Origin: Bradyrhizobium betae
GTDB taxonomy: Bacteria; Pseudomonadota; Alphaproteobacteria; Rhizobiales; Xanthobacteraceae
Direction of reading: 5' to 3'
Length of the DNA: 64,000 bases
NCBI RefSeq assembly: GCF_004123905.1
Contig: NZ_MZXW01000024.1
Coordinates: forward strand, 1-64,000
The position numbers and the translations under genes were made by a program. This document shows, piece by piece, positions 128 through 11,673 of this stretch (position 1 is its first letter; every line of letters begins with the position of its first letter). The notes beneath the pieces are model-generated. The model did no database searches. It was not told where the DNA came from and saw only the letters and a program-made list of their open reading frames with translations.

Positions 128-811
128 TTAGGACGCGGACTCATTAAGGCGCAGCCACAACCGGATTGACGCGAGTTGAACAAATGCAAGGTAGTTGGCG
201 GCGAGCCTGTCGTAGCGTGTCGCCACCCGACGGCATTGCTTGATCCTGTTGAAGAACCGTTCGACTTGATTGCGAGCGCGGTAGAGGTACGGGCTAAAGC
301 AGATCGGATTGTTGCGATTGCTTTTCGGCGGGATGTTGGCCCACGCGCCCTTCTTCATGGCAAGCTCCCTGATCCAGTCGGCGTCATAGCCTCGGTCGGC
401 GAGCAGCATTGATCCGGATTTAAGACGAGACAGCAGTTTTCCGGCCAGTCGAACGTCGTGCGCCTCGCCGGGACTCAACGCCAGCCGTACAGGCAGACCA
501 TTGCCATCGACCACCGCGTGGATTTTGCTCGTCAAGCCGCCGCGTGACCTTCCCATCGATTGGCGCTGGTTCCTTGTGATGCAGGCCCCATGTTGATGTA
601 CGCGAACAATAGACGTGTCGATCATCTGCACGGCAGCATCATGAGCGCCAGCCAGTGCACTCATGAGCTTCGCCCACACGCCCGCCCGTCGCCAGCGAAC
701 GAACCGATTGTAGCAGGTCGTGTACGGACCGAAGCTTTCTGGCAGGTCGCGCCATGGTGCTCCAGAGCGCAAGACCCAGAAGATGCCATTGAGGACACGA
801 CGGTCATTCAC
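128..811 (-). pseudogene. IS5 family (IS427-like) transposase, 5'-truncated
   Basis: DDE transposase of the IS5/IS427 kind. The 227 residues carry family blocks such as GIFWVLRSGAPWRDLP, MIDTSIVRVHQHGA, GRSRGGLTSKIHAVVD, LLADRGYDADWIR and NQVERFFNRIKQCRRVATRYD, including the DDE-type Asp in IDTS and ADRGYD and the Glu in VERFF. Full-length relatives have roughly 30-40 more N-terminal residues before the VDDRRVLNG-like block. Here the reading frame opens with a GTG exactly where the neighbouring lyase fragment stops, so the 5' end of the element is missing and the gene is probably dead. Identity of the family is firm; the exact ends of the element were not resolved. Confidence 0.85.
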
Positions 812-814
812 TCG

Positions 815-1474
815 AAGGTGCGTCCGGCGGCTAGTCCACCTTTTAACTCCATGGCGATCATGCCCCCGAAGGAACGCATCTGGCGGCTCGCCAGCATCTT
901 CTGCGGATGGCTATCGAGACCAGGAAAATAGACTCGCTCCACGGACGGATGGCCTTCAAGGTCATGGGCGAGCTTAAGGGCAGTTTCGCAATGGGGGTCC
1001 ATGCGCAGGGTTAGAGTCTTCAATCCGCGCAGGATCAGGAACGCATCAAAGGCCGAGATACAAGCACCGTTCATCTCTTTGATTCCCACGAACCGGAACT
1101 GATCGATATGCTCCTTGCGCGCAACAATGGCGCCGGCGAGTAGATCCCCATGCCCGCCAAGATATTTCGTCGCCGAATGCACGACGATGTCCGCGCCGAG
1201 CGTGATCGGCTTCTGGAGGTAAGGTGTACAATACGTGTTGTCGACGACGAGCAAGACACCCACCCGACGGCAGATTTGTGCGATCGCGGCAATGTCGACC
1301 ACGCGCATGTTGGGATTGGACGGCGTCTCGGTAATTACCATCCGAGTTTTGGTCGTTAGGACGGCAGCGAGGTTCTCCGGATCGGTGAGGTGAGCAAACC
1401 GTGTGACGATACCAAAACGCTCGATCTGGTGATGCAGCAGCCCAAAGGTGCATCCGTAAAGGGTCTTCGGCGCG
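815..1474 (-). pseudogene. Methionine gamma-lyase / cystathionine gamma-synthase-like fragment, truncated at both ends
   Basis: Fragment of a Cys/Met-metabolism PLP enzyme (fold type I). It reads from KTLYGCTFGLLHHQIERFG through TETPSNPNM, VVDNTYCTPYLQKP and the PLP-lysine block HSATKYLGGHGD to FGGMIAMELKGGLAAGRTF. The N-terminal ~110 residues and the C-terminal ~80 residues expected of a ~400-residue enzyme are missing. The 5' end abuts the IS110 remnant near 1470 and the 3' end abuts the IS5 remnant near 812, so both losses coincide with IS junctions. Within the fragment the frame is intact, which suggests fairly recent disruption. Substrate specificity (methionine, cystathionine or O-succinylhomoserine) cannot be settled. 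Confidence 0.8.
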
Positions 1475-2338
1475 CATCACCTCAACCGCAAGCTACAAAT
1501 GCTTGGCCACGACGCTCGCCTGTTGCCGGCGAAATACGTGCGCCCCTACTCGAAGGGACAGAAGAATAACTTCCGAGATGCGGAAGCCATCGCTGAGGCT
1601 GTCCAACGCCCGACCATGAAATTCGTCGCAACCAAGACAGCCGATCAGCTCGACCTTCAGGCGCTGCACCGCGTCCGCGATCGATTGGTCGGTCAGCGTA
1701 CCGGCGTCATCAATCAGATCCGTGCGCTTCTGCTGGAGCGTGGCATCGCCGTACGCCAAGGCCTGCATTCCCTGCGGTCCGAGTTGCCGGGTATCCTCGC
1801 GACGCGCACCGATGTGCTCTCGCCTCGCATGTTACGCATCATCGAGGATCTGGCGGGAGACTGGCGCCGGCCGGATGCGCGTATCGAGGGGCTCTAGCGA
1901 GATCGAAACGCTGGCCCGTCAAGATAAGGCCTGCGAGCGACTGATGACGGTGCCCGGCATTGGCCCGCTTATCTCCAGTGCAATGGTGGCCGCGATCGGC
2001 ACTGGAGACGTGTTCTCGAAAGGGCGCGACTTCGGCGCCTGGCTTGGACTGGTGCCGAAGCAGGATCGACCGGCGACCGCACGATCCTCGGAAATATATC
2101 AAGGCGCGGCAATCGCTACCTACGCGCGCTGTTCGTCCAAGCCGCATGGGTCGTGTTGGTCAAGGTCAAGTGCTGGGAGCGCTACGGCCTCAAATCCTGG
2201 ATCGAAGCCGCCAAGAAGCGATTGCATCACAACGTGCTGGCGATTGCGCTCGCCAACAAGCTCGCCCGCATCGCTTGGGCGGTTCTCAACAAGGGACGCG
2301 CCTTCGAGTGTGTCAAGACTGAGGAGACGGCGTCCTGA
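1469..2338 (+). pseudogene. IS110 family transposase, N-truncated with two frameshifts
   Basis: RuvC-like DEDD transposase of the IS110 family. The reading starts in mid-protein (AHHLNRKLQMLGHDARLLPAKYV) and continues through SKGQKNNFRDAEAIAEAVQRP in one frame to about 1895. It switches frame for the C-terminal HhH-type block (TVPGIGPLISSAMVAAIG, GAWLGLVPKQ) and switches back near 2060 for STGDRTILGNISRRGNRYLR to the end (HHNVLAIALANKLARIAWAVL). The N-terminal ~80 residues with the first catalytic Asp are absent at the junction with the lyase fragment. The two shifts and the truncation make it inactive. Confidence 0.85.
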
Positions 2339-2911
2339 CCTGGCCGATCCTCGCGCCGTGCTCAGGGCCGTCAAGGCGCGGCCTGGCAGCGGCAGAGCAA
2401 GAACGTCAGGACAGCACGACGGCCGGCCTTGACGGCCCCTTGCGCGCGGCGCGTCTGCGCGCGCAGGCCGGGACGAAGGAACGAGCGCCAGGCACGAACA
2501 AAGGAACAGCGCGAAGTGAGGAGCTATCGAGATGACGTAACCAACATCCCTTACCCGCCGAGGTCTGCGAGAGGATGAGACAACAATGGAGGATCGGTCT
2601 TCCCGGCGCATGCGAACACTGGTGACCCGAATGGCCCGATGAGGCCTGTCCGCTAACCAGCTCGAATGCGCGCTGATATCCAGGATGGCCGGGAGCACAG
2701 CACGCTCCAATCAGAGGCCGGATACATTGATGCAAGACCGCATCTGACAGGTTGACGAAACCTCTTGCAACGCGCGGCCGGACCATACATTCGGGTCAAT
2801 CGCGTCGATTTGCCCGCGTCTTCTCGATGTCCGCTATGGCCCCAGCTGCCGGCGTGCCGGACACGATGGCAATGTTCGCCTTCGGGCCACTAGCGGTCCA
2901 GACTTTGCTTG
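2339..2911. other. Non-coding stretch after the IS110 remnant
   Basis: No convincing gene on either strand. The first ~450 bases probably include the non-coding right end of the IS110 element, which in this family lies downstream of the transposase. No terminal inverted repeat is seen, as expected for IS110. The rest leads to the convergent end of the Crp/Fnr gene. Confidence 0.4.
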
Positions 2912-3589
2912 TTAATCATTCCGCTCTATCTCGGGCTTGTCATGCAAAACAGCGTTCAACAGCGAATTATGAACTTCTATCTTTCCATTGTAGCTGATGA
3001 GTCCAAGTTTGCGGAACTTGTTCATGAAGAAGCTCACGCGGGATCGGGTCGTTCCGATCATCTCAGCCAATGTTTCCTGGCTGATATCCAATAGAATAGG
3101 CTGAGGTATACCTTCCTTTCCGAAATGTGCGAGCAGAAGGAGAAGGCGCGCGAGTCGCTTCTCGCTCGAATTAAAGAGCTGATCGATCAAATCTTCTTCA
3201 ACTCGGCTGTTCCGGGTCAAGAGATACGCCATGAACAACTCCGAGAATTTCGGCTCGGTATGAAGGGTGGCAATCATCGCTTCTTTGGTGATTGAGGTAA
3301 TCACACATTCTTCCATCGCCGTTGTGGTCGCGATGCGCAATGGATGACCATTGAGGCATCCCTCGCCGAAGAACTGACCCGGTTCTAGAATCCCGACTAC
3401 CGCTTCCTTGCCTTGCTCGGATAGGACAGTGAGCTTGACCTTACCCTTTTGAATGTAAAAAACCGTATCCGCCGCGTCACCTTGCTCAAAGACGTGCCGA
3501 TTTTTCTCCAATTTCAAGATCGTCTTGCCGGCCCCTACCTTGGCGAGAAAGGTTTGGGGATCGAACTCGTTATTGGCTGGCTTCCCCAC
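2912..3589 (-). CDS. Crp/Fnr family transcriptional regulator
   Basis: Cyclic-nucleotide-binding-fold regulator of about 225 residues. The N-terminal effector domain shows VFEQGDAADTVFYIQKGKVKL and GQFFGEGCLNG, and the C-terminal winged helix shows SQETLAEMIGTTRSRVSFFMNKFRKLGLI, the recognition helix. No N-terminal cysteine cluster for an Fe-S centre is seen, so it is not a classical FNR. I chose a GTG start at 3589 because AAAGGAGG lies five bases upstream; the open frame continues to 3901 but that extension is poor in family features. It sits alone at the edge of the island, divergent from two tiny genes. Ligand and targets are unknown. Confidence 0.85.
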   Translation of the reverse strand: MGKPANNEFDPQTFLAKVGAGKTILKLEKNRHVFEQGDAADTVFYIQKGKVKLTVLSEQGKEAVVGILEPGQFFGEGCLNGHPLRIATTTAMEECVITSITKEAMIATLHTEPKFSELFMAYLLTRNSRVEEDLIDQLFNSSEKRLARLLLLLAHFGKEGIPQPILLDISQETLAEMIGTTRSRVSFFMNKFRKLGLISYNGKIEVHNSLLNAVLHDKPEIERND

Positions 3590-3886
3590 AGGAGCCTCCT
3601 TTGCTCCGATGAACGGGCGCGGCCTCAAATTATAGCGGTTCCAACGCCGTAATGAAGCAGCTACTTTGGATAGTGAGGGGAATTTGACTGGCTGGAGGGA
3701 GTCCCGCAAGGGAAACCGGGACTCCTCGTGGGCCAGACGTCGGACTGGCGGCTTTGTTTCGGAAGCTGACCAATATTGACCAGCGGCTCCAGAGCCCGGA
3801 AGAGTATGCTGCTGCATCACCGCCCCGTATAGGCTTCTACCGGTGACTGAGAGTATCGCGCTCCCGCCTGATCCAAGGCGAGCATC

Positions 3887-4066
3887 ATGCCATCCGTCCA
3901 TCCCGATCCACTTTACAGCCGGGCCGAAATCGGAATCCTAGCGTGCCCTAAGTGCCACAAGCCAATGAGGCTGTCTTGCATCGAACCGGCCGCATCTGGC
4001 TATGATGTACGCACTTTCGAGTGTGCGAAGTGCGATTCCAGCGAGCGCTTTCTGGTCGCCATCTAA
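3887..4066 (+). CDS. Small CxxC...CxxC zinc-ribbon-like protein (59 aa)
   Basis: A 59-codon frame starting ATG at 3887 and ending TAA. It contains CPKCHKPM near residues 20-27 and FECAKCDSSE near 45-54, i.e. two CxxC knuckles about 25 residues apart, the layout of a small zinc ribbon. Small single-ribbon proteins of this shape are common in rhizobia. The gene diverges from the Crp/Fnr regulator with about 300 bases between them; no clear ribosome binding site is visible. Function unknown. Confidence 0.65.
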   Translation: MPSVHPDPLYSRAEIGILACPKCHKPMRLSCIEPAASGYDVRTFECAKCDSSERFLVAI

Positions 4067-4275
4067 TCGCGACCGCCGTGCTGGCGCGGAATAAACCGAC
4101 ACCTTGCTACTGGCGCGGTGGTCGTCCCGACGGAGGAAAGAGAACATCTGATCAGCTAGATGGGAGCCACGGAGTAATTCGGGCTTCACCAAGTCTTGAT
4201 GTGCAAGCGCCGGGAACAGGTTAGATGTAAGCGCGTACCGATGCGTTGATGTTGGGCCTCTGACAGGAGATTTCA

Positions 4276-4416
4276 ATGCATAAAGAGGGAAGACAAATAG
4301 TAGAGACGGCGGTCGAGGCGAGAGGCGGTCTTTTAGGCAGGCCGGTTCTCCTGGTGCTGCTCGTTAGCTGCGTTCTGGCAGTTGCCGCACTTATCGTTAC
4401 GTATTCGGGCGCGTGA
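4276..4416 (+). CDS. Single-span membrane microprotein (46 aa)
   Basis: ATG at 4276 preceded by AGGAGA five bases upstream, 46 codons, TGA stop. An N-terminal charged segment (MHKEGRQIVETAVEARGG) is followed by one hydrophobic span, VLLVLLVSCVLAVAALIV, and a short tail. The topology is that of a small inner-membrane protein. I do not recognise a family with a known role. It follows the zinc-ribbon gene on the same strand after about 210 empty bases. Confidence 0.6.
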   Translation: MHKEGRQIVETAVEARGGLLGRPVLLVLLVSCVLAVAALIVTYSGA

Positions 4417-4580
4417 AAAAAGCCTTTTGAAGAACGCAATTCTCAAACGCGTCCGATACAATAGCTCGACCATTGCCCGGGAGCTTTGCTGCAAAGCAGG
4501 CGTCTCGCCGGCTATCAAAATATCTCACAGGCCGAAACCAGTCCTCAAGACAAGGATACCCTCGTGATGGGGCGGCGCCA

Positions 4581-4880
4581 CTATTTCCCCTCGAGGAGGT
4601 GCCCGAGAGCCTTTAACGGGCGCAATCTATCAGAAATGATCTTCAGGATAGCCAACATGGGGACGGCCAAGATCGCGCCAGGCACGCCCCACATCCAGAA
4701 CCAGAACACCAGCGACAAGATGATCAACACCGGGTTCAGCGTGAAGCGCCGCGCAAGCAGCATGGGCGTCAGTGTTTCACCCTCGACGAGATGAATGCCA
4801 AAGTAGATGACCGGCGGCAGCAAGGCCCACCATAAGCTTTCGAAGCTCAGCATTCCGACCAGCACGAAAATTTCCATCAG
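4581..4880 (-). pseudogene. 3' remnant of an AI-2E family transporter gene
   Basis: About 99 codons matching the last two or three membrane segments of an AI-2E/PerM-type permease, ending at LGHLLEGK and a TAG stop. Full family members have about 350 residues, so roughly 250 N-terminal residues are missing. The remnant is joined in frame to the helicase gene near 4880, so it now reads as its C-terminus. The most economical explanation is a deletion or insertion boundary at this point. Confidence 0.65.
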
Positions 4881-7088
4881 GGTCTTCTCGGCCTGCGCGT
4901 CTACCGATCTGACACGCTCGTCGGCCCCCGAGAGCGACTCTTTGATATTCGACTCTTGCTGGAGCAATAGCAGCAATCGCTCGACCAGCATGCCTACTTC
5001 GATGTTAGACCGATCGATGCCTTTCGACTTCGCCAATTCGGCAATGAAGGCGCGTGCCCGCTCGCGCACGGTTTCTGACCAAACCTGGGCCTTGCGATCG
5101 AGGATGAGGTCCCGACAGGAGGCGCTGACCTTAAGGTCATCAAGCCTTCCGATCCTGACGATATCGATGGTGGGCTGTCGCCCCCGCACCCGATCGATGA
5201 CGTTGTCCAGCGCCACGTGCGTTTGCGATGATAGAAGGACGCGATGCTGCGGGTTCCGGAGCAGATATTGGACAATGATCTCTTCGATCAGCCTCGTCTT
5301 TCCCGTGCCCGGAGGGCCTTGGATCGCTAAGATGTCCTGCAGCCCTAAGGCCCTCGACAAGATCTCCTGCTTTTCCAGATCGAACGAACCCGAGGTAGCG
5401 GGTGGGACGGTCAGGGCGGCCGCTGGTCGTGCCGCCAAGGGCTCAACCAGCAAGGACTTAAGCCTTGAGCTCGCCGCCCGATCGTAGTTGATGGAATCGA
5501 GCGCTCGGCGCTGCCGCTCAATGGCCTTTTCCGCTGCAATCGTGTTGAGCTCCAGGCGTCCCTGTCGTGGGATCAAACTCGAGTCGCCGAAAGTCGCTAT
5601 GACCACGACTTCTTGAAGATTGACGTCAACGATGTCGCAGAAGACATGTGCGCCGGAAGCGATTTTGATCACGCGCGATTGGCCGATCAACTCGAGGCCT
5701 ACCGGCAGTTCGGTCGACAGCGTCACCGCGTTATCTGTGCGCTTCGCGTCAGTGTAGACGATTGCGTTTTCGCGACTCTCCTCGTAATCGGCCTTGTTGC
5801 GAAGGAATGAATACCATAGCCGAAACACCCGCTCGCGCCGCTGGGTAATCGCCCGCTCTCTCCTCTCCTGCTCGAAGGCCTCTATCTGAAAGACGAGCTC
5901 CCGGACCTCCTCGGTTGCTTGCTCGACGTCCGGTGGTTCTCCGAAGGAGAACATGATGGGAGCGCGAAAGCACAGTTCCCGCTCGCGCTCGACGTTAGCT
6001 GCTCCCCCTTGCCATGCTCTTCGGATAGACCATCGCTCGCTGTTCTTAGACAACCTGCGCGCCTCGAACGTCCACGTCACCGCAGTAATACGGAGCAGCT
6101 CGTCGGTGCCCTCCTTCGCGGGGATATACTGCAACCCGACTTCCACCTCGTGCAATTCGTGGAGGACGAACGTCTCGGCATCTCCAGGATCATTCCGATC
6201 GATCTGCCGGAGAATGCGCTGCATGCACTCCGCTTCGAACCGGATGTAGCAAGTGAATTCTGGCCGAGATTTCGCTGCCGATACGGCGGCGATCGCATCA
6301 AGGTCCGCCAACAGGCCGCTCGCGAGGGGAGGCCGCTCGGAAGGGATGTGCGAGAGTGCCAGCTGCAACAACGATGAAGGGACCGAACTCTGGTCCAGAC
6401 TGGCGAGCAGCTCAGACAGCTCGCCGTAATCGGCCGGCATCTTCCCGGAAAGAGAATATACCGCCACAGCAGCCCACGAGAAGCAATCCCGAGAACAGCT
6501 CCACTCTCCGCCGTCATCTTCGGGAGGGGTGAACGGAGCCGAACGGAACTGCGCGAAGGTTAATCCGAGGGACGGTCGCTCGAACTGCTTTGCTATACCG
6601 TAGTCGGAGAGTTTCGGTACGTCTTTATCATTGATGAGGATGTTCTGAGGCTTTATGTCACGATGGTTCCATCCTCGGTTCTGAGCATAGACCAACGCAT
6701 CGAGTATGGGGCGGCCTATGGACGGATAGAACTCCCGCCATTCGAATGGCCCCCGGCGCGTAATGAGATCAACAAGATTGGTCGGTACCCATTCAAGGAC
6801 CATGTAGAAGCCGGCCTCGTCGGCTCCGGCATCCAGCAGCTCCACGATATTTGGATGCTGGCAGAGTTCGTTCAGGGCGGCGTATTCTCGATTGAAGCTA
6901 TCCTTGAAGCGGAGATCGGTGTCGCCCCCTCCTGCCTTCATTCTCTTGATTGCGCAAAACCTACTAGTATGCAGGTCGACCGCCTTGCTGACGGTCGACA
7001 TGCCCCCGTGCCTGACAGGATCGTTGGTGAGAGCGTAGCGGCCATCAATGATGCGCGGCGCTGCGGCCTGATTGAAGCTCGAACTCAA
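4581..7088 (-). CDS. Ser/Thr kinase - SF1 helicase (COG1112-like), truncated and fused to AI-2E transporter tail
   Basis: 835 residues in one frame. Residues ~15-270 form a Hanks-type kinase: AIK lysine near 48, HRDIKPQN near 142, and SDYG in place of DFG near 161. After a linker domain (~270-560) comes the start of a DNA2/UPF1-like SF1 helicase with GPPGTGKT at about 591-598 and motif Ia LLSSQTHVALDNV. Motifs II to VI are absent. From about residue 737 (near base 4880) the protein becomes transporter-like: LLPPVIYFGIHLVEGETLTP and FWFWMWGVPGAILAVPMLAI, typical of the AI-2E/PerM C-terminus. Kinase plus COG1112-type helicase is the architecture of Mokosh MkoA; no PLD nuclease partner is present. 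Start is a TTG at 7088 without a good ribosome site, so the N-terminus is uncertain. The helicase is expected to be inactive. Confidence 0.7.
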   Translation of the reverse strand: MSSSFNQAAAPRIIDGRYALTNDPVRHGGMSTVSKAVDLHTSRFCAIKRMKAGGGDTDLRFKDSFNREYAALNELCQHPNIVELLDAGADEAGFYMVLEWVPTNLVDLITRRGPFEWREFYPSIGRPILDALVYAQNRGWNHRDIKPQNILINDKDVPKLSDYGIAKQFERPSLGLTFAQFRSAPFTPPEDDGGEWSCSRDCFSWAAVAVYSLSGKMPADYGELSELLASLDQSSVPSSLLQLALSHIPSERPPLASGLLADLDAIAAVSAAKSRPEFTCYIRFEAECMQRILRQIDRNDPGDAETFVLHELHEVEVGLQYIPAKEGTDELLRITAVTWTFEARRLSKNSERWSIRRAWQGGAANVERERELCFRAPIMFSFGEPPDVEQATEEVRELVFQIEAFEQERRERAITQRRERVFRLWYSFLRNKADYEESRENAIVYTDAKRTDNAVTLSTELPVGLELIGQSRVIKIASGAHVFCDIVDVNLQEVVVIATFGDSSLIPRQGRLELNTIAAEKAIERQRRALDSINYDRAASSRLKSLLVEPLAARPAAALTVPPATSGSFDLEKQEILSRALGLQDILAIQGPPGTGKTRLIEEIIVQYLLRNPQHRVLLSSQTHVALDNVIDRVRGRQPTIDIVRIGRLDDLKVSASCRDLILDRKAQVWSETVRERARAFIAELAKSKGIDRSNIEVGMLVERLLLLLQQESNIKESLSGADERVRSVDAQAEKTLMEIFVLVGMLSFESLWWALLPPVIYFGIHLVEGETLTPMLLARRFTLNPVLIILSLVFWFWMWGVPGAILAVPMLAILKIISDRLRPLKALGHLLEGK

Positions 7089-7261
7089 CTGCTGGAGGGC
7101 CCCCGAACCCGCCTGAAGGGAAAAAACTATCTCCGATTGTAACTCACTATTTCTCGCCTATTTTGAACCGCTCTACAAGTCACAGCAAAGCCTTTGTGAC
7201 CAAAGTCTACGTACTAAGTCCGACCTGCGCGGAGCCATTTTCCTCATGTGGTGTTGCCCGA

Positions 7262-8920
7262 TTATAGCTTTTCCACCAAATGAACCTCCACCGGAAACCC
7301 CATGAGTTGAATACGATCAGCAACGGATCGAAGACTGACCTTGCTGAAGAAGGGAATGCTGATGACGCCGGATTTCTTGTACCGGTCCCGCATGATCCCG
7401 AATACCACCGTAAACTCACTCGGCACAGGCTTCGAACGTCCATCAGGAAGAATAGCGTCAAAACCTGCCTTCTTGGATCTTGTCTGCCGCTTCTTGACCT
7501 CTTTCCGGAGATCGATCCGGAATTTTTCGTCACGCACGAAGGACTCGGCCGACACGACACCCTGATTCCACAGGTGGCTGATCGGCGCCGATGAGTGGCC
7601 GTCTTTGAGATGGATGAATTGCTTTGTCGTCGAGAGGAAATCACAGGGTTCGAGGTTGGCGCCCGGCGCGCTTGCAGGCGACAGCTTTACCTGATCCAGA
7701 TTGAGTAGATTCTTATGCGCGTCGAGCTCAGTGATGAATTCGCGCTCGCTCTCGGTTTTGGTAGACGCGACAAATGGCTTTTTCGCCACCAGCTTGGCGA
7801 AGTCATTTTCTACAGCCGCGTGAAACGCCTTATCGACCACGAACCAGTCCCCCGCAAACAGGACATATGTATCGCTCTTATAGGTGAGTTCGTAGACAAA
7901 GCAGTCATACAGCTTTCGCCTCTGCTTCTTGTCGCCCTCGCCATCGGTGATCACACGTATCTCGTGGCTGCCGCGAAGTTCAGCCATATCGGCGATTTCC
8001 GCGATCTGTCCAGCCCTAAGCTCCTCGACGTAATCCTCAATCGCAATCTGCGTATAGACTTGCTTGCGCCCCGACTTTAACCCGATACCGAAATACCCAA
8101 CCTCGGCACTCTCTTCGGGGCTTAGGATGTCCGGCAACGTGATGTGAAGGTCCGACGCATGCCCTTTTACCAATTCTTGCAGCTCCACAAAGGCTAGCGA
8201 GTCCAGTTGCTCGAGAAGATCCTGCTGCCGAACCGGAGATATGAAGTCGATAAAACCGAAATCCACCTTGTAGTCGGTGGCCTGATGGAGTTTGAGGGCC
8301 GTCTTGCATTTCTCGATGACGTCAGCAGGCGAGGTCTTCGTATGCAAGGTCAGAGCGTCTTTGCCAGCCAGCGACCTTGCGAAGGAATTGTCCTTCGGTG
8401 ATCCGGCGGCCAGCCTCAATAGGTCCCGATCGACGTCAATTCCGAATCCTTGCAAATCGGCATCGCGACTTGCCTGAATGCGTTTCTGAAAAGTTGTGGC
8501 ATCAAGCGTGGCGATATCCAGGCTGCGTAGATTTGAGCGAGCGACCGCATTCAGAACGACCTTCAAACCAAAACTTCGCTCAAGGGCGTCGGGATCGAGC
8601 GAATGATGGCCGGTCCCGAAAGTAAGAACCACAGTGCGCTTCGCAAATCGCTTGTCGTCGGGGATTACCTCCAAGAAGAGCACCGCAGCACAGCTTTGGT
8701 TTACAAGCCGACGGAGCCCTCCCGTTGCAAATCCGCTGACAAAATCGAACCAAGTCGGCGGTACCGCAGGCGCCTGGCCAACAAACAACCTTCCAGCTTC
8801 GGAAGGCCGTTCTTCAAGCTCATGGCCGTCCCGTAAGGAATCGTCGATGGTACGCCCACTTCGAAGAAGCCTTACGGAAAGGCTCATCGACTTGTTTGCT
8901 TTAACTCCCCCATCAGCCAT
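7262..8920 (-). CDS. TIGR04141/DUF6119-like sporadically distributed protein
   Basis: 552 residues, no signal peptide or membrane segment. The N-terminus MSLSVRLLRSGRTIDDSLRDG followed by HELEE, the central FATGGLRRLVNQSCAAVLF and KRTVVLTFGTGHHSL blocks, and the late WFVVDKAF block fit the TIGR04141 family of patchily distributed proteins. That family is found near restriction and other defence genes and has no settled function. Start ATG at 8920 has GAGG six bases upstream. It lies 173 bases upstream of the kinase-helicase on the same strand, so the two may be co-transcribed. Base composition is lower in GC than the flanking chromosome, consistent with transfer. Confidence 0.7.
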   Translation of the reverse strand: MADGGVKANKSMSLSVRLLRSGRTIDDSLRDGHELEERPSEAGRLFVGQAPAVPPTWFDFVSGFATGGLRRLVNQSCAAVLFLEVIPDDKRFAKRTVVLTFGTGHHSLDPDALERSFGLKVVLNAVARSNLRSLDIATLDATTFQKRIQASRDADLQGFGIDVDRDLLRLAAGSPKDNSFARSLAGKDALTLHTKTSPADVIEKCKTALKLHQATDYKVDFGFIDFISPVRQQDLLEQLDSLAFVELQELVKGHASDLHITLPDILSPEESAEVGYFGIGLKSGRKQVYTQIAIEDYVEELRAGQIAEIADMAELRGSHEIRVITDGEGDKKQRRKLYDCFVYELTYKSDTYVLFAGDWFVVDKAFHAAVENDFAKLVAKKPFVASTKTESEREFITELDAHKNLLNLDQVKLSPASAPGANLEPCDFLSTTKQFIHLKDGHSSAPISHLWNQGVVSAESFVRDEKFRIDLRKEVKKRQTRSKKAGFDAILPDGRSKPVPSEFTVVFGIMRDRYKKSGVISIPFFSKVSLRSVADRIQLMGFPVEVHLVEKL

Positions 8921-9538
8921 TTGCGACCTCAGCCAATAAGCCTTTAGAGCGAACGGGCTTCAAAATAGTGACCGCCCCCGCCGTAACTAAGTCATTAGCA
9001 ACCCACGGTTGGCAAGCCCCGAACTTGCTCAATCGATCATTGGACGGACTGTGGCCCTGCGTGCCGAGTCGCGGGCGCGGCAAGGCCCGAGAAGCCGCGG
9101 CGTACTGGGTGCCTCGCCTTCGTGGGGCGTGACGACAACATGGTGAAGCCTGCCTACTTCACCGACCGCACCAGTTTCGCACCACAAACGACACGAACAA
9201 ACCACGACGAACGCGATCAAGTTCAAACAAAAACGCAGCAAAATCAACGAAGCTGGTCGATAGTCTGCCGCTCATAACGGTCTGGTTGCATGTTCGAACC
9301 GGCTGACCGACCAGTGGAATCTGCGCCGCCATGATGCGAGGGTTGGCTCGCCGCATCAGTCTTGCCCCCCGAAGGCGGCGGACAAATGTCCGACGTGTTA
9401 GCGCCGGGGACATCCTTTCCGTACTCCAAAGAAGCCGAATTCCCTACGCGCGGTGAGGAATGCTTTTCGCCTGTAGCTTTATCTGTTCATTTTGCTTCGC
9501 CAAGACTTCGCTCAAAAAGCCAAGAGTGGCGAGGCATT
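8921..9538. other. Intergenic region inside the island
   Basis: About 620 bases between the leftward TIGR04141-like gene and the rightward excisionase-like gene. Short open frames here have no recognisable content. It should hold the divergent promoters of both units; I see no clear operator or repeat. Confidence 0.4.
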
Positions 9539-9847
9539 ATGCGTTTGCGTCCCCAGAGCATGCAGCCACCCTATTCTTCGACCGAGGTCGCGGCAGCGAT
9601 TGGCGTCTCTCTAGATACATTCTATCGCACGCGCCGCCTCAGGCACGAGCGCGATGGCTTGCCTTCGCCGATCAGCGAGCGAGGACCGCTGAAATGGGAA
9701 CGTACCGGCTTCGATGCTTGGCTTACCCGATACCATCCTATGCGCCCAAAGACGATTGCTAATGACGCATTCACGCCACCGCCGGCAGCAAGCGACGAGG
9801 AACACCGCGAGCGGCTGCGCAGAGCCTACGGCCAGCACGACGCTTGA
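9539..9847 (+). CDS. Excisionase/AlpA-like helix-turn-helix protein
   Basis: 102-residue protein with a MerR/AlpA-type winged-helix start: YSSTEVAAAIGVSLDTFYR, then RRLRHERDGLPSPI and WERTGFDAWLTRYH. That pattern matches small DNA-binding proteins that act as excisionases or transcription factors beside tyrosine integrases. The ATG at 9539 was chosen because the longer frame upstream has no domain content; the GAGG before it is weak. It precedes the integrase by about 60 bases on the same strand. Confidence 0.7.
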   Translation: MRLRPQSMQPPYSSTEVAAAIGVSLDTFYRTRRLRHERDGLPSPISERGPLKWERTGFDAWLTRYHPMRPKTIANDAFTPPPAASDEEHRERLRRAYGQHDA

Positions 9848-9906
9848 CAGACTAGATCGCGCTAGATTCCAATGGGTGCCATCTCTCATTGGCACTCAGG
9901 CTCTTT

Positions 9907-11433
9907 ATGGCCGATCCCAAGTTTCCCCATGTGAAGTGGCGTGATGGCCGTCCTCGCTCGTCGCACGGCGCTTATGCCAGGGCACTCGGCTTTGTCGATG
10001 CCGACCTGCGCCATCCGCCGTACGATGAAAAGGGACGTCCGGTCGGTGCGTGGTTCAATCTCCAAGAAGCCTCAGACTTTTCAGACAAACGAAAGTCGGA
10101 AATTGAGGCGGCTCGCCGTGCCGGTAAGCTGCCGAAGAAAATTACGATCCGGAAGCGTTCTACGATCGAAGATCTTCTGGACGATTGGAGCAAGTCGGTT
10201 GAGTTCAAGGCGTTGTCGTCCGCCTCACAATCTTCCTATCGAAAATGTATCTCCGCTATCTTGTACCGACCGCAATCACGCGAATCCGCGGCAAAGATGC
10301 GTGCCGAAATCCGTGCTGCCAAGCTGCTCGGCGTGGCCGAGCCCGCACGAGAGCTCGAGGCGATCGCGACTGCCACTCCGACATCGATCGGCAAACCGGA
10401 GTTCCGCGCCTTCTATAACTATGCGAAATCGGCTCGCGGCCATCATATGGCGCTCTCGATGATCGCCACGCTCTCAGCGGCATTCACTTGGGGGCAGGAA
10501 AGCGTCTTGTGGCGTCTCGGACCCAACCCGCGAGAAGGCATGGAGTTCGATCATCCAGACGGACGCATCGTACAGGTTGCGATGTCCGAATTTTCCGCGT
10601 GGGTCGCAGCAGCCGATGCGATCGAACGGCCTTCGGTCGGGGACAGCTTCCATCTGGCGTTGTTCACTGGGCAACGCCAGACTGACCGTTTAATTATGCG
10701 CAATGAGGGCGACGTCGAGGGCCGGCACGCGTTCCGGCAGAGCAAGACTGGCGAGCTTGTCGACATCAAGGAGGCGCCACAACTCAGCGCACGGCTAAAT
10801 GCCTCGCGTGCACGGATAAAGGAACTCAAGCTTCGGCTTCAACTGGATAAGGTGCCACCCGAGCTCGTGGTCAACGAGGACAATGGTGAGCCTTATGACG
10901 AGAGTACCTATCGCCATTGGGTGTCGACCGCACGGGCCGTCGCTATCTTCGGCTTTCTCGCGCGCGACAACGCGCGCCAGGCAATTGTCCGCGCAGAGCG
11001 ACTGAACGCCGAACTGATTAAAAACGTCGACAAGCTGTTCGCCCCCTTTCCTCTCGATGAGGAGAAAAAGGCGCAGCGCGCCCGAGCGGTCGATCAGCGC
11101 AAGCGCGCATTAGCGGAATGGCTGGATGCGCAGACCGCACGCGACAGCAATGGCCATGAGACAGCATGGCGTCTAAGGCCTTGCCCCGCGCTCATGTTCG
11201 TCAACGGCGCCGGCGAACTCGACCAAAAGCACGACCAAGACCTACGTGATACCTGCGTCATGCTTCTGGATCGGGCTGGCTGTGACTTGCTGACGATCTG
11301 CGACATCACTGGGCATTCATACCGAAGCGCGCAGACCATCGTGAAGCACTACCGCGCCCGCAATGCGGCTCGCGCCGATTTCGGTATCGACAGGCTTGAA
11401 TTGCAGGTGCGGAAGGAAGGCATGAAGAGCTGA
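9907..11433 (+). CDS. Site-specific tyrosine recombinase (island integrase)
   Basis: 508-residue integrase. The catalytic core shows the box-I arginine in LFTGQRQTDRL (R at about 257), a degenerate box II (QDLRDTCVMLLDRAG), TGHS and the C-terminal HY with tyrosine near 480. An insertion of about 100 residues separates box I from box II, which is long but known in rhizobial island integrases. The N-terminal part has a SAM-like core-binding region (DLLDDWSKSVEFKALSSASQ). I used the ATG at 9907; a TTG six codons upstream is also possible. The gene ends 165 bases from the 3' end of tRNA-Lys, the usual arrangement for tRNA-targeting integrases. It would recombine the tRNA 3' end with the element's att site. 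Confidence 0.9.
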   Translation: MADPKFPHVKWRDGRPRSSHGAYARALGFVDADLRHPPYDEKGRPVGAWFNLQEASDFSDKRKSEIEAARRAGKLPKKITIRKRSTIEDLLDDWSKSVEFKALSSASQSSYRKCISAILYRPQSRESAAKMRAEIRAAKLLGVAEPARELEAIATATPTSIGKPEFRAFYNYAKSARGHHMALSMIATLSAAFTWGQESVLWRLGPNPREGMEFDHPDGRIVQVAMSEFSAWVAAADAIERPSVGDSFHLALFTGQRQTDRLIMRNEGDVEGRHAFRQSKTGELVDIKEAPQLSARLNASRARIKELKLRLQLDKVPPELVVNEDNGEPYDESTYRHWVSTARAVAIFGFLARDNARQAIVRAERLNAELIKNVDKLFAPFPLDEEKKAQRARAVDQRKRALAEWLDAQTARDSNGHETAWRLRPCPALMFVNGAGELDQKHDQDLRDTCVMLLDRAGCDLLTICDITGHSYRSAQTIVKHYRARNAARADFGIDRLELQVRKEGMKS

Positions 11434-11494
11434 ACGCGGACCGGTGGGTCTCGTGTTAGAGTGGTGGATGGGCTTCGGTCCTGTTTATCCGACT

Positions 11495-11513
11495 CGTCGC
11501 ACGGCGTGCGACG
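11495..11513. repeat. Perfect 8-bp-arm palindrome after the integrase
   Basis: CGTCGCAC-GGC-GTGCGACG lies between the integrase stop and tRNA-Lys. It may be an integrase terminator without a T-run, or an integrase arm-type or core site. Only the symmetry is certain. Confidence 0.5.
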
Positions 11514-11565
11514 TACGACCATTAAAAGCGTCGCATGAGACCCGGTTTGTTCTGTCGAGGAATTT

Positions 11566-11584
11566 AAAAAAGCCCTTGCGGGCC
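11566..11584 (-). terminator. Intrinsic terminator of tRNA-Lys
   Basis: On the minus strand GCCC-GCAA-GGGC is followed by six T residues, 15 bases past the CCA end of tRNA-Lys. It is a short but classical rho-independent signal. Confidence 0.75.
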
Positions 11585-11597
11585 AATCGCTTGAGGG

Positions 11598-11673
<76 letters not shown>

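What the first reader, a model, noticed from the sequence alone, without database searches (positions are those of the whole stretch)
4581..7088. Kinase-helicase gene runs in frame into the tail of an AI-2E transporter
Residues 1-736 are an apparently active Hanks kinase plus the start of an SF1 helicase; the last 99 residues are the C-terminal membrane part of an AI-2E permease. Helicase motifs II-VI are missing. The kinase plus COG1112-type helicase is the architecture of the Mokosh MkoA protein. Either a defence gene has been cut and sealed in frame, or a new membrane-anchored kinase-ATPase arose. The in-frame join and absence of stops make it worth checking whether it is expressed.
Basis: partly seen in the sequence, partly recalled or inferred. 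Interest (0 to 1): 0.75.

Follow-up and report, generated by a model that had tools for sequence, protein, structure and literature searches.

The report
Truncated Mokosh defence gene fused to transporter
A bacterial anti-virus gene (kinase plus helicase, Mokosh type) has lost its second half, apparently in a DNA deletion, and now reads by chance into the last quarter of a membrane-transporter gene; it looks like a broken remnant seen in one genome, not a new kind of protein.

Summary
Window 4581-7088 (-) is one open frame of 835 codons: residues 1-739 are the front of a MkoA (Mokosh kinase-helicase), 740-835 the end of an AI-2E-family transporter. The break is sharp, at 4871/4872, with one shared base. 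An intact orthologue (1147 aa, 95% identical over 739 residues) lies in Bradyrhizobium sp. WSM1743 before mkoB and a PP2C phosphatase gene, between Hachiman and BREX genes. The nearest transporter relatives whose frames I measured, where long (403-449 aa), carry no kinase. The own genome gave no MkoB match and no close match to the missing helicase half, but keeps another AI-2E gene. In 265 genus genomes searched the fusion appears only here. Best reading: an illegitimate deletion in a region of broken genes removed helicase motifs II-VI, mkoB and the transporter's front; keeping the frame is a one-in-three event and needs no selection. The kinase keeps its catalytic residues, so residual kinase activity is possible, but Mokosh defence should be lost. 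Ordinary decay; low interest. By-product: a PP2C gene follows mkoB in 9 of 11 Hyphomicrobiales Mokosh loci examined and in 0 of 6 from other phyla.

The parts
4581..7088 (-). the fused open reading frame, 835 aa, TTG start
4872..7088 (-). front part of a mkoA gene (residues 1-739): kinase domain, middle region, helicase motifs I and Ia
   Evidence: Pfam and PADLOC; 95.1% aa identity to residues 1-739 of the 1147-aa WSM1743 protein; DNA 92% over window 4871-7236
4581..4871 (-). 3' end of an AI-2E-family transporter gene (residues 740-835) with its stop codon
   Evidence: Pfam PF01594; 90% DNA identity over 4577-4871 to a 438-aa AI-2E gene in G002 that matches the profile from 4 to 326 of 327
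4871..4872 (-). the join; base 4871 (A on the minus strand) fits both parents
   Evidence: 22 of 23 AI-2E rows listed end at window 4871 and the WSM1743 (G154) row begins there; sequence comparison
7089..7236 (-). upstream DNA of mkoA shared with WSM1743
   Evidence: the DNA match to WSM1743 runs on to 7236
7262..8920 (-). TIGR04141/DUF6119 gene (552 aa), next upstream; at the corresponding place WSM1743 has only 106 bp between its two matching stretches
9889..11433 (+). gene that I read as an integrase, from its protein and its place beside the tRNA; no Pfam match at E 0.001
11598..11673 (-). tRNA-Lys (CTT), probable island attachment site; its last 50 bp recur, 94-100% identical over 47-50 bp, on contigs C25, C34 and C3 of the own genome

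Best explanation
A Mokosh type I locus (mkoA, mkoB and probably a PP2C phosphatase gene) sat in a tRNA-Lys-linked accessory region of a Bradyrhizobium chromosome, with an AI-2E transporter gene in the same orientation further downstream. A deletion with practically no homology (one shared base) removed everything from codon 740 of mkoA to about codon 342 of the transporter gene. Both cut points happened to be in the same frame, so the remnant reads as kinase + half a helicase domain + the last hydrophobic segments of the transporter. Shown: the two parents, the sharp join, and that the missing pieces were not found in the own genome. Inferred: a deletion rather than another rearrangement, end joining as the mechanism, loss of defence function. 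If the remnant is translated, the kinase part could still fold, but without helicase motifs II-VI and without MkoB it should not be able to run the Mokosh reaction; it is most likely a young pseudogene.
For: Intact 1147-aa orthologue, 95.1% identical over residues 1-739, with AAA_11 nearly complete and AAA_12 present. AI-2E parent type with its own front in G002 (438 aa); 22 of 23 listed AI-2E rows end at exactly the join base. Own genome: no match to WSM1743 DNA from the join to the end of the PP2C gene (no positive control), no MkoB match, and for the missing helicase half only a distant 32%-identical helicase on C54; in the two protein searches all 5 other genomes gave the genes. The 5' part of the closest AI-2E type was found in the own genome only as the 75%-identical paralogue on C1. 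The left neighbourhood holds a partial Cys/Met PLP enzyme (profile 140-309 of 381), IS110 pieces in two frames and an IS4/5-family transposase that lacks the start of its first domain. Fusion in 1 of 265 genus genomes.
Against: No strain of the same species without the deletion could be examined, so the event and its size are not seen directly. The head shows no stops or frameshifts and strong past constraint against WSM1743 (dN 0.022, dS 0.295), which an old pseudogene would not; most of that divergence may predate the cut. Polarised replacements lean only weakly towards relaxed constraint on the window side (6 window-derived, 2 WSM1743-derived, 27 unresolved), a difference that small numbers can give by chance.
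Confidence: 0.78

Rival explanations
1. The join is the edge of an insertion: a fragment of foreign DNA ending inside mkoA entered the AI-2E gene by illegitimate recombination, so no Mokosh operon was ever complete in this lineage.
For: The island side (integrase-like gene, TIGR04141, mkoA) and the left side (AI-2E, Crp-type regulator) have different relatives: the left parts occur a few kb from one another in G002 and on the own contig C1.
Against: It needs a separate loss of the transporter's front; deletion explains both losses in one step. The two cannot be told apart without a sister strain.
Confidence: 0.15
2. A functional membrane-anchored kinase: the deletion made a protein in which the MkoA kinase is tethered to the membrane by the transporter's last segments and serves a new regulatory role.
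For: The frame is open over 835 codons; the HRD, DYG and Walker A residues are intact in the alignment; all 19-residue windows with mean hydropathy above 1.6 lie in the tail, in 740-758 and 776-820; the head is conserved.
Against: Seen in 1 of 265 genus genomes and in no other of 397 sampled from the order. Keeping the frame is a one-in-three event. No sigma-70-like promoter match in 6900-9400 (a weak test, since shuffles give only 1.3 on average).
Confidence: 0.04
3. Assembly artefact: two unlinked loci were joined wrongly at 4871.
For: The genome is a 57-contig draft and no reads could be examined.
Against: The two sides share one base only, so no repeat there could mislead an assembler; there is no N in 4000-7300; the missing partner pieces (helicase half, mkoB, the front of this transporter type) were not found on another contig, where a misjoin of two whole loci would leave them.
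Confidence: 0.03

Closest known systems
Mokosh type I (MkoA + MkoB)
   Same: Residues 1-739 are MkoA by PADLOC profile and by 95% identity to an intact MkoA that is followed by MkoB.
   Different: Lacks helicase motifs II-VI, AAA_12 and MkoB; carries an unrelated transporter tail.
AI-2E family transporter (PF01594)
   Same: Residues 740-822 match the last quarter of the family profile.
   Different: Profile positions 1-243 are missing; this piece alone should not form a transporter.
Chance in-frame gene fusions by deletion in bacterial chromosomes (a general phenomenon; recalled, not looked up for this genus)
   Same: Two genes in the same orientation joined through a deletion, with the reading frame kept.
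   Different: Nothing in principle; the parents happen to be a defence gene and a permease.

Membership tests
Mokosh type I | MkoA protein: Ser/Thr kinase + complete SF1 (COG1112-type) helicase (definition recalled) | tested here: not met
   Kinase present; helicase stops after motif Ia: AAA_11 to profile 147/257, no AAA_12, MkoA profile to 742/1112
Mokosh type I | MkoB partner gene next to mkoA | tested here: not met
   No MkoB match in the own genome at E 0.001; 5 of 5 other MkoA-bearing genomes in the same search have one
Mokosh type I | anti-phage activity | not testable with these tools
   needs a bench test
Mokosh mkoA (descent of the head) | sequence descent from mkoA | tested here: met
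   95.1% identity over residues 1-739 to the WSM1743 protein, which matches MkoA at E 1.8e-224
AI-2E family transporter | full-length multi-spanning PF01594 domain | tested here: not met
   only profile 244-326 of 327

The most novel reading that the evidence does not exclude
The fusion is expressed and has become a membrane-tethered protein kinase, cut free from its helicase sensor, that now phosphorylates targets in this strain.
Probability: 0.04. Interest if true: 0.55.

Novelty: new member of a known kind. Interest (0 to 1): 0.14.

Why it matters
Mostly as a caution: a profile scan scores this locus as MkoA at E 7.9e-102, although by anatomy the system should be dead; defence-gene counts need partner and full-length checks. 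As a by-product, the intact relatives show a PP2C phosphatase gene as a frequent third gene of Mokosh loci in Hyphomicrobiales, which suggests that the MkoA kinase is kept in check by dephosphorylation there; that is testable and more interesting than the fusion.

Tried and rejected
A second copy or the missing halves elsewhere in the own genome: not found. One search had no positive control; two searches were run with five genomes that hold the genes. TIGR04141 as a Mokosh partner: no match to it in the 16 MkoA loci tested with tblastn (4 Bradyrhizobium, 12 plasmid), and no PADLOC match. The same call found no AI-2E match in those 16 loci. Phage origin of the fused gene: of 25 phage records with a match none has a place covering 80% of the query; the ten listed match the kinase part only. 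A plasmid record with the join: 14 plasmid records match a stretch around the join and none covers 80% of it. Relaxed selection after the cut: 6 against 2 polarised replacements, inconclusive. Structure prediction was not run: the profile matches already show which part of the helicase is missing.

Limits of the fusion searches: one search used the MkoA head only and scored at most 4 candidates per genome; searches scored 2 per genome, and one search did not list all its rows. One genome per species is held, so sister strains were not searched.

Papers: Mokosh was seen only as passages in PMC10952713, PMC11291487 and PMC12278908, and as search listings. I did not fetch the original Mokosh paper; what I say of the system's definition is recalled. 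No paper in the held library has both 'Mokosh' and 'PP2C'; the one with 'Mokosh' and 'Bradyrhizobium' has a title about Tenacibaculum (listing only). Searches gave nothing of use.

Full report
What is there. The minus strand of window 4581-7088 is one open frame of 835 codons with a TTG start and no internal stop. Pfam finds a protein kinase at 27-220, the front of an SF1 helicase (AAA_11, 573-706, to profile position 147 of 257) and the end of an AI-2E transporter (740-822, profile 244-326 of 327). PADLOC names residues 12-703 MkoA with E 7.9e-102, covering profile 5-742 of 1112. The window is contig C5 bases 1-64000 of a 57-contig, 8.6-Mb draft.

The two parents. In Bradyrhizobium sp. WSM1743 (L032, NZ_AXAZ01000002.1) the orthologue is whole: 1147 aa, 95.1% identical over residues 1-739, with AAA_11 (profile 6-253 of 257) and AAA_12, and MkoA E 1.8e-224. 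It is followed by mkoB (492 aa; PADLOC MkoB E 4.2e-48, though no Pfam match at E 0.001) and a PP2C phosphatase gene, with hamA-hamB (Hachiman) upstream and brxL and pglZ (BREX) downstream. The tail's nearest relative is a 438-aa AI-2E gene in G002 (90% DNA identity over window 4577-4871). Of the nine AI-2E rows with 86% or more protein identity to the tail, seven have frames of 416-449 codons and two are short (G027, 171; G002, 211); a further one has 403. In G027 the homologous stretch is split over two overlapping frames, so this transporter decays elsewhere too.

The join. WSM1743 DNA matches the window up to base 4871 on the one side, and AI-2E genes match it up to the same base from the other; 22 of the 23 AI-2E rows listed stop exactly there (one runs 7 bases further; more rows were not listed). 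The parents share one base at the join. Residue 739 is the last from MkoA and 740 the first from the transporter. Helicase motif II (VDEAS) is absent from the window protein and present in the 14 other MkoA proteins aligned (one of them reads IDEAS); motifs III-VI lie further on in the WSM1743 protein, by my reading.

What is missing from the genome. WSM1743 DNA from the join to the end of the PP2C gene has no match in the own genome (without a positive control). With proteins and positive controls: MkoB is found in 5 of 6 genomes and not in the own one; the helicase half is found as part of the mkoA frame in 5 of 6, while the own genome has only a distant helicase (32% identity, contig C54). 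The front of the closest AI-2E type was not found; the own genome keeps a separate AI-2E gene with a 416-codon frame on C1, 87% identical to the tail in protein and 75% in DNA to the G002 gene. So the pieces do not seem to have been moved; they seem to be gone.

Surroundings. tRNA-Lys (CTT) at 11598-11673 and the gene at 9889-11433, which I read as an integrase, suggest a tRNA-Lys island; the stretch 9165-11597 recurs almost whole in three genomes (G280, G172, G069) and in part in many more, and the last 50 bp of the tRNA recur on contigs C25, C34 and C3. To the left lie a partial Cys/Met PLP enzyme (profile 140-309 of 381), IS110 pieces in two frames, an IS4/5-family transposase that lacks the start of its first domain, and a Crp-type regulator whose relatives also sit a few kb from AI-2E genes in G002 and on the own contig C1. 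G+C is 0.535-0.606 per kb in the first 12 kb against 0.619-0.640 in 12-16 kb. This looks like a zone of gene turnover where deletions are expected.

Is it functional? The head carries 124 synonymous and 35 replacement codon differences to WSM1743 over 739 codons (dN 0.022, dS 0.295 over 735), so it was under strong constraint for most of the time since the split. Among replacements that outgroups can polarise (at least 4 of 13 agree with one side and none with the other), 6 fall on the window side and 2 on the WSM1743 side, 27 being unresolved: a weak lean towards relaxed constraint. Of 72 columns invariant in the 13 other MkoA proteins the window keeps 65 and WSM1743 67. Kinase HRD and DYG and the Walker A motif are intact. 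I conclude a recent cut: too young to have gathered stops. Keeping the frame has one chance in three, and 607 of 1230 simulated join points would leave 60 or more open codons, so the open frame alone is no sign of selection. The fusion was seen in 1 of 265 genus genomes and in none of the other 396 genomes sampled from the order at E 1e-40 (the one other MkoA-like hit there has an 1140-codon frame).

Verdict. A truncated Mokosh mkoA with an accidental AI-2E tail, made by illegitimate deletion (0.78) or at the edge of an insertion (0.15), which cannot be separated here. A working membrane kinase is not excluded but has no positive evidence (0.04); a misassembly is unlikely (0.03).

By-product: PP2C with Mokosh. 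All 12 plasmid loci opened (of 335 records with a match; 12 of the first 22 listed) and the four further Bradyrhizobium loci have MkoA and, right after it, a MkoB relative by tblastn (the weakest, L087, at E 2e-4). A PP2C gene follows in 6 of 6 Hyphomicrobiales plasmid loci (H1, H2, H3, H5, H6, H7), with overlapping annotated gene ends in all six, and in 3 of 5 Bradyrhizobium loci (WSM1743, G203, G084), so in 9 of 11. In 6 of 6 cyanobacterial or actinobacterial plasmid loci (H8, H9, H12, H14, H15, H20) neither the annotation nor tblastn with the WSM1743 PP2C shows one. No held paper has both words 'Mokosh' and 'PP2C'. A kinase-phosphatase module in phage defence is known from KKP (PMC11341870; start of the abstract seen in the listing).

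Noticed in passing
L032:10001-15652; L073-L076, L082, L083; L036, L037: A PP2C phosphatase gene directly follows mkoB in Mokosh loci of Hyphomicrobiales (6 of 6 plasmid loci opened, 3 of 5 Bradyrhizobium loci) but in 0 of 6 cyanobacterial or actinobacterial plasmid loci opened; three of the plasmid loci add a DUF3800 gene. Suggests a phosphatase-regulated Mokosh variant.
   Followed up: partly
window 9159-9297; L101-L120: A stretch of about 135 bp recurs on its own in 42 listed rows of the genus search. In 14 of 20 fetched copies it runs on into an exact 18-base string that reads like a tRNA acceptor end with CCA, in 3 more nearly so, in 3 not; in the window it does not. Rfam (8 of the 20 loci scanned) gives no match and ARAGORN printed none for the 20. 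Possibly a conserved tRNA-remnant attachment site of genomic islands.
   Followed up: partly
L032:3078-20157: WSM1743 carries Hachiman (hamA, hamB), Mokosh with PP2C, and BREX genes (brxL, pglZ) side by side, with a Ku-like gene (my reading, not searched) at 3078-4001.
   Followed up: no
window 7262-8920 (-): TIGR04141/DUF6119 gene of unknown function sits upstream of the truncated mkoA; at the corresponding place WSM1743 has only 106 bp between the two matching stretches, so the gene was gained here or lost there.
   Followed up: no
window 128-2432: Row of partial or frame-split genes: IS4/5-family transposase, middle part of a Cys/Met-metabolism PLP enzyme, IS110 pieces.
   Followed up: no
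L008:1498-2360: In G027 the AI-2E homologue is split over two overlapping frames, so this transporter decays elsewhere too.
   Followed up: no
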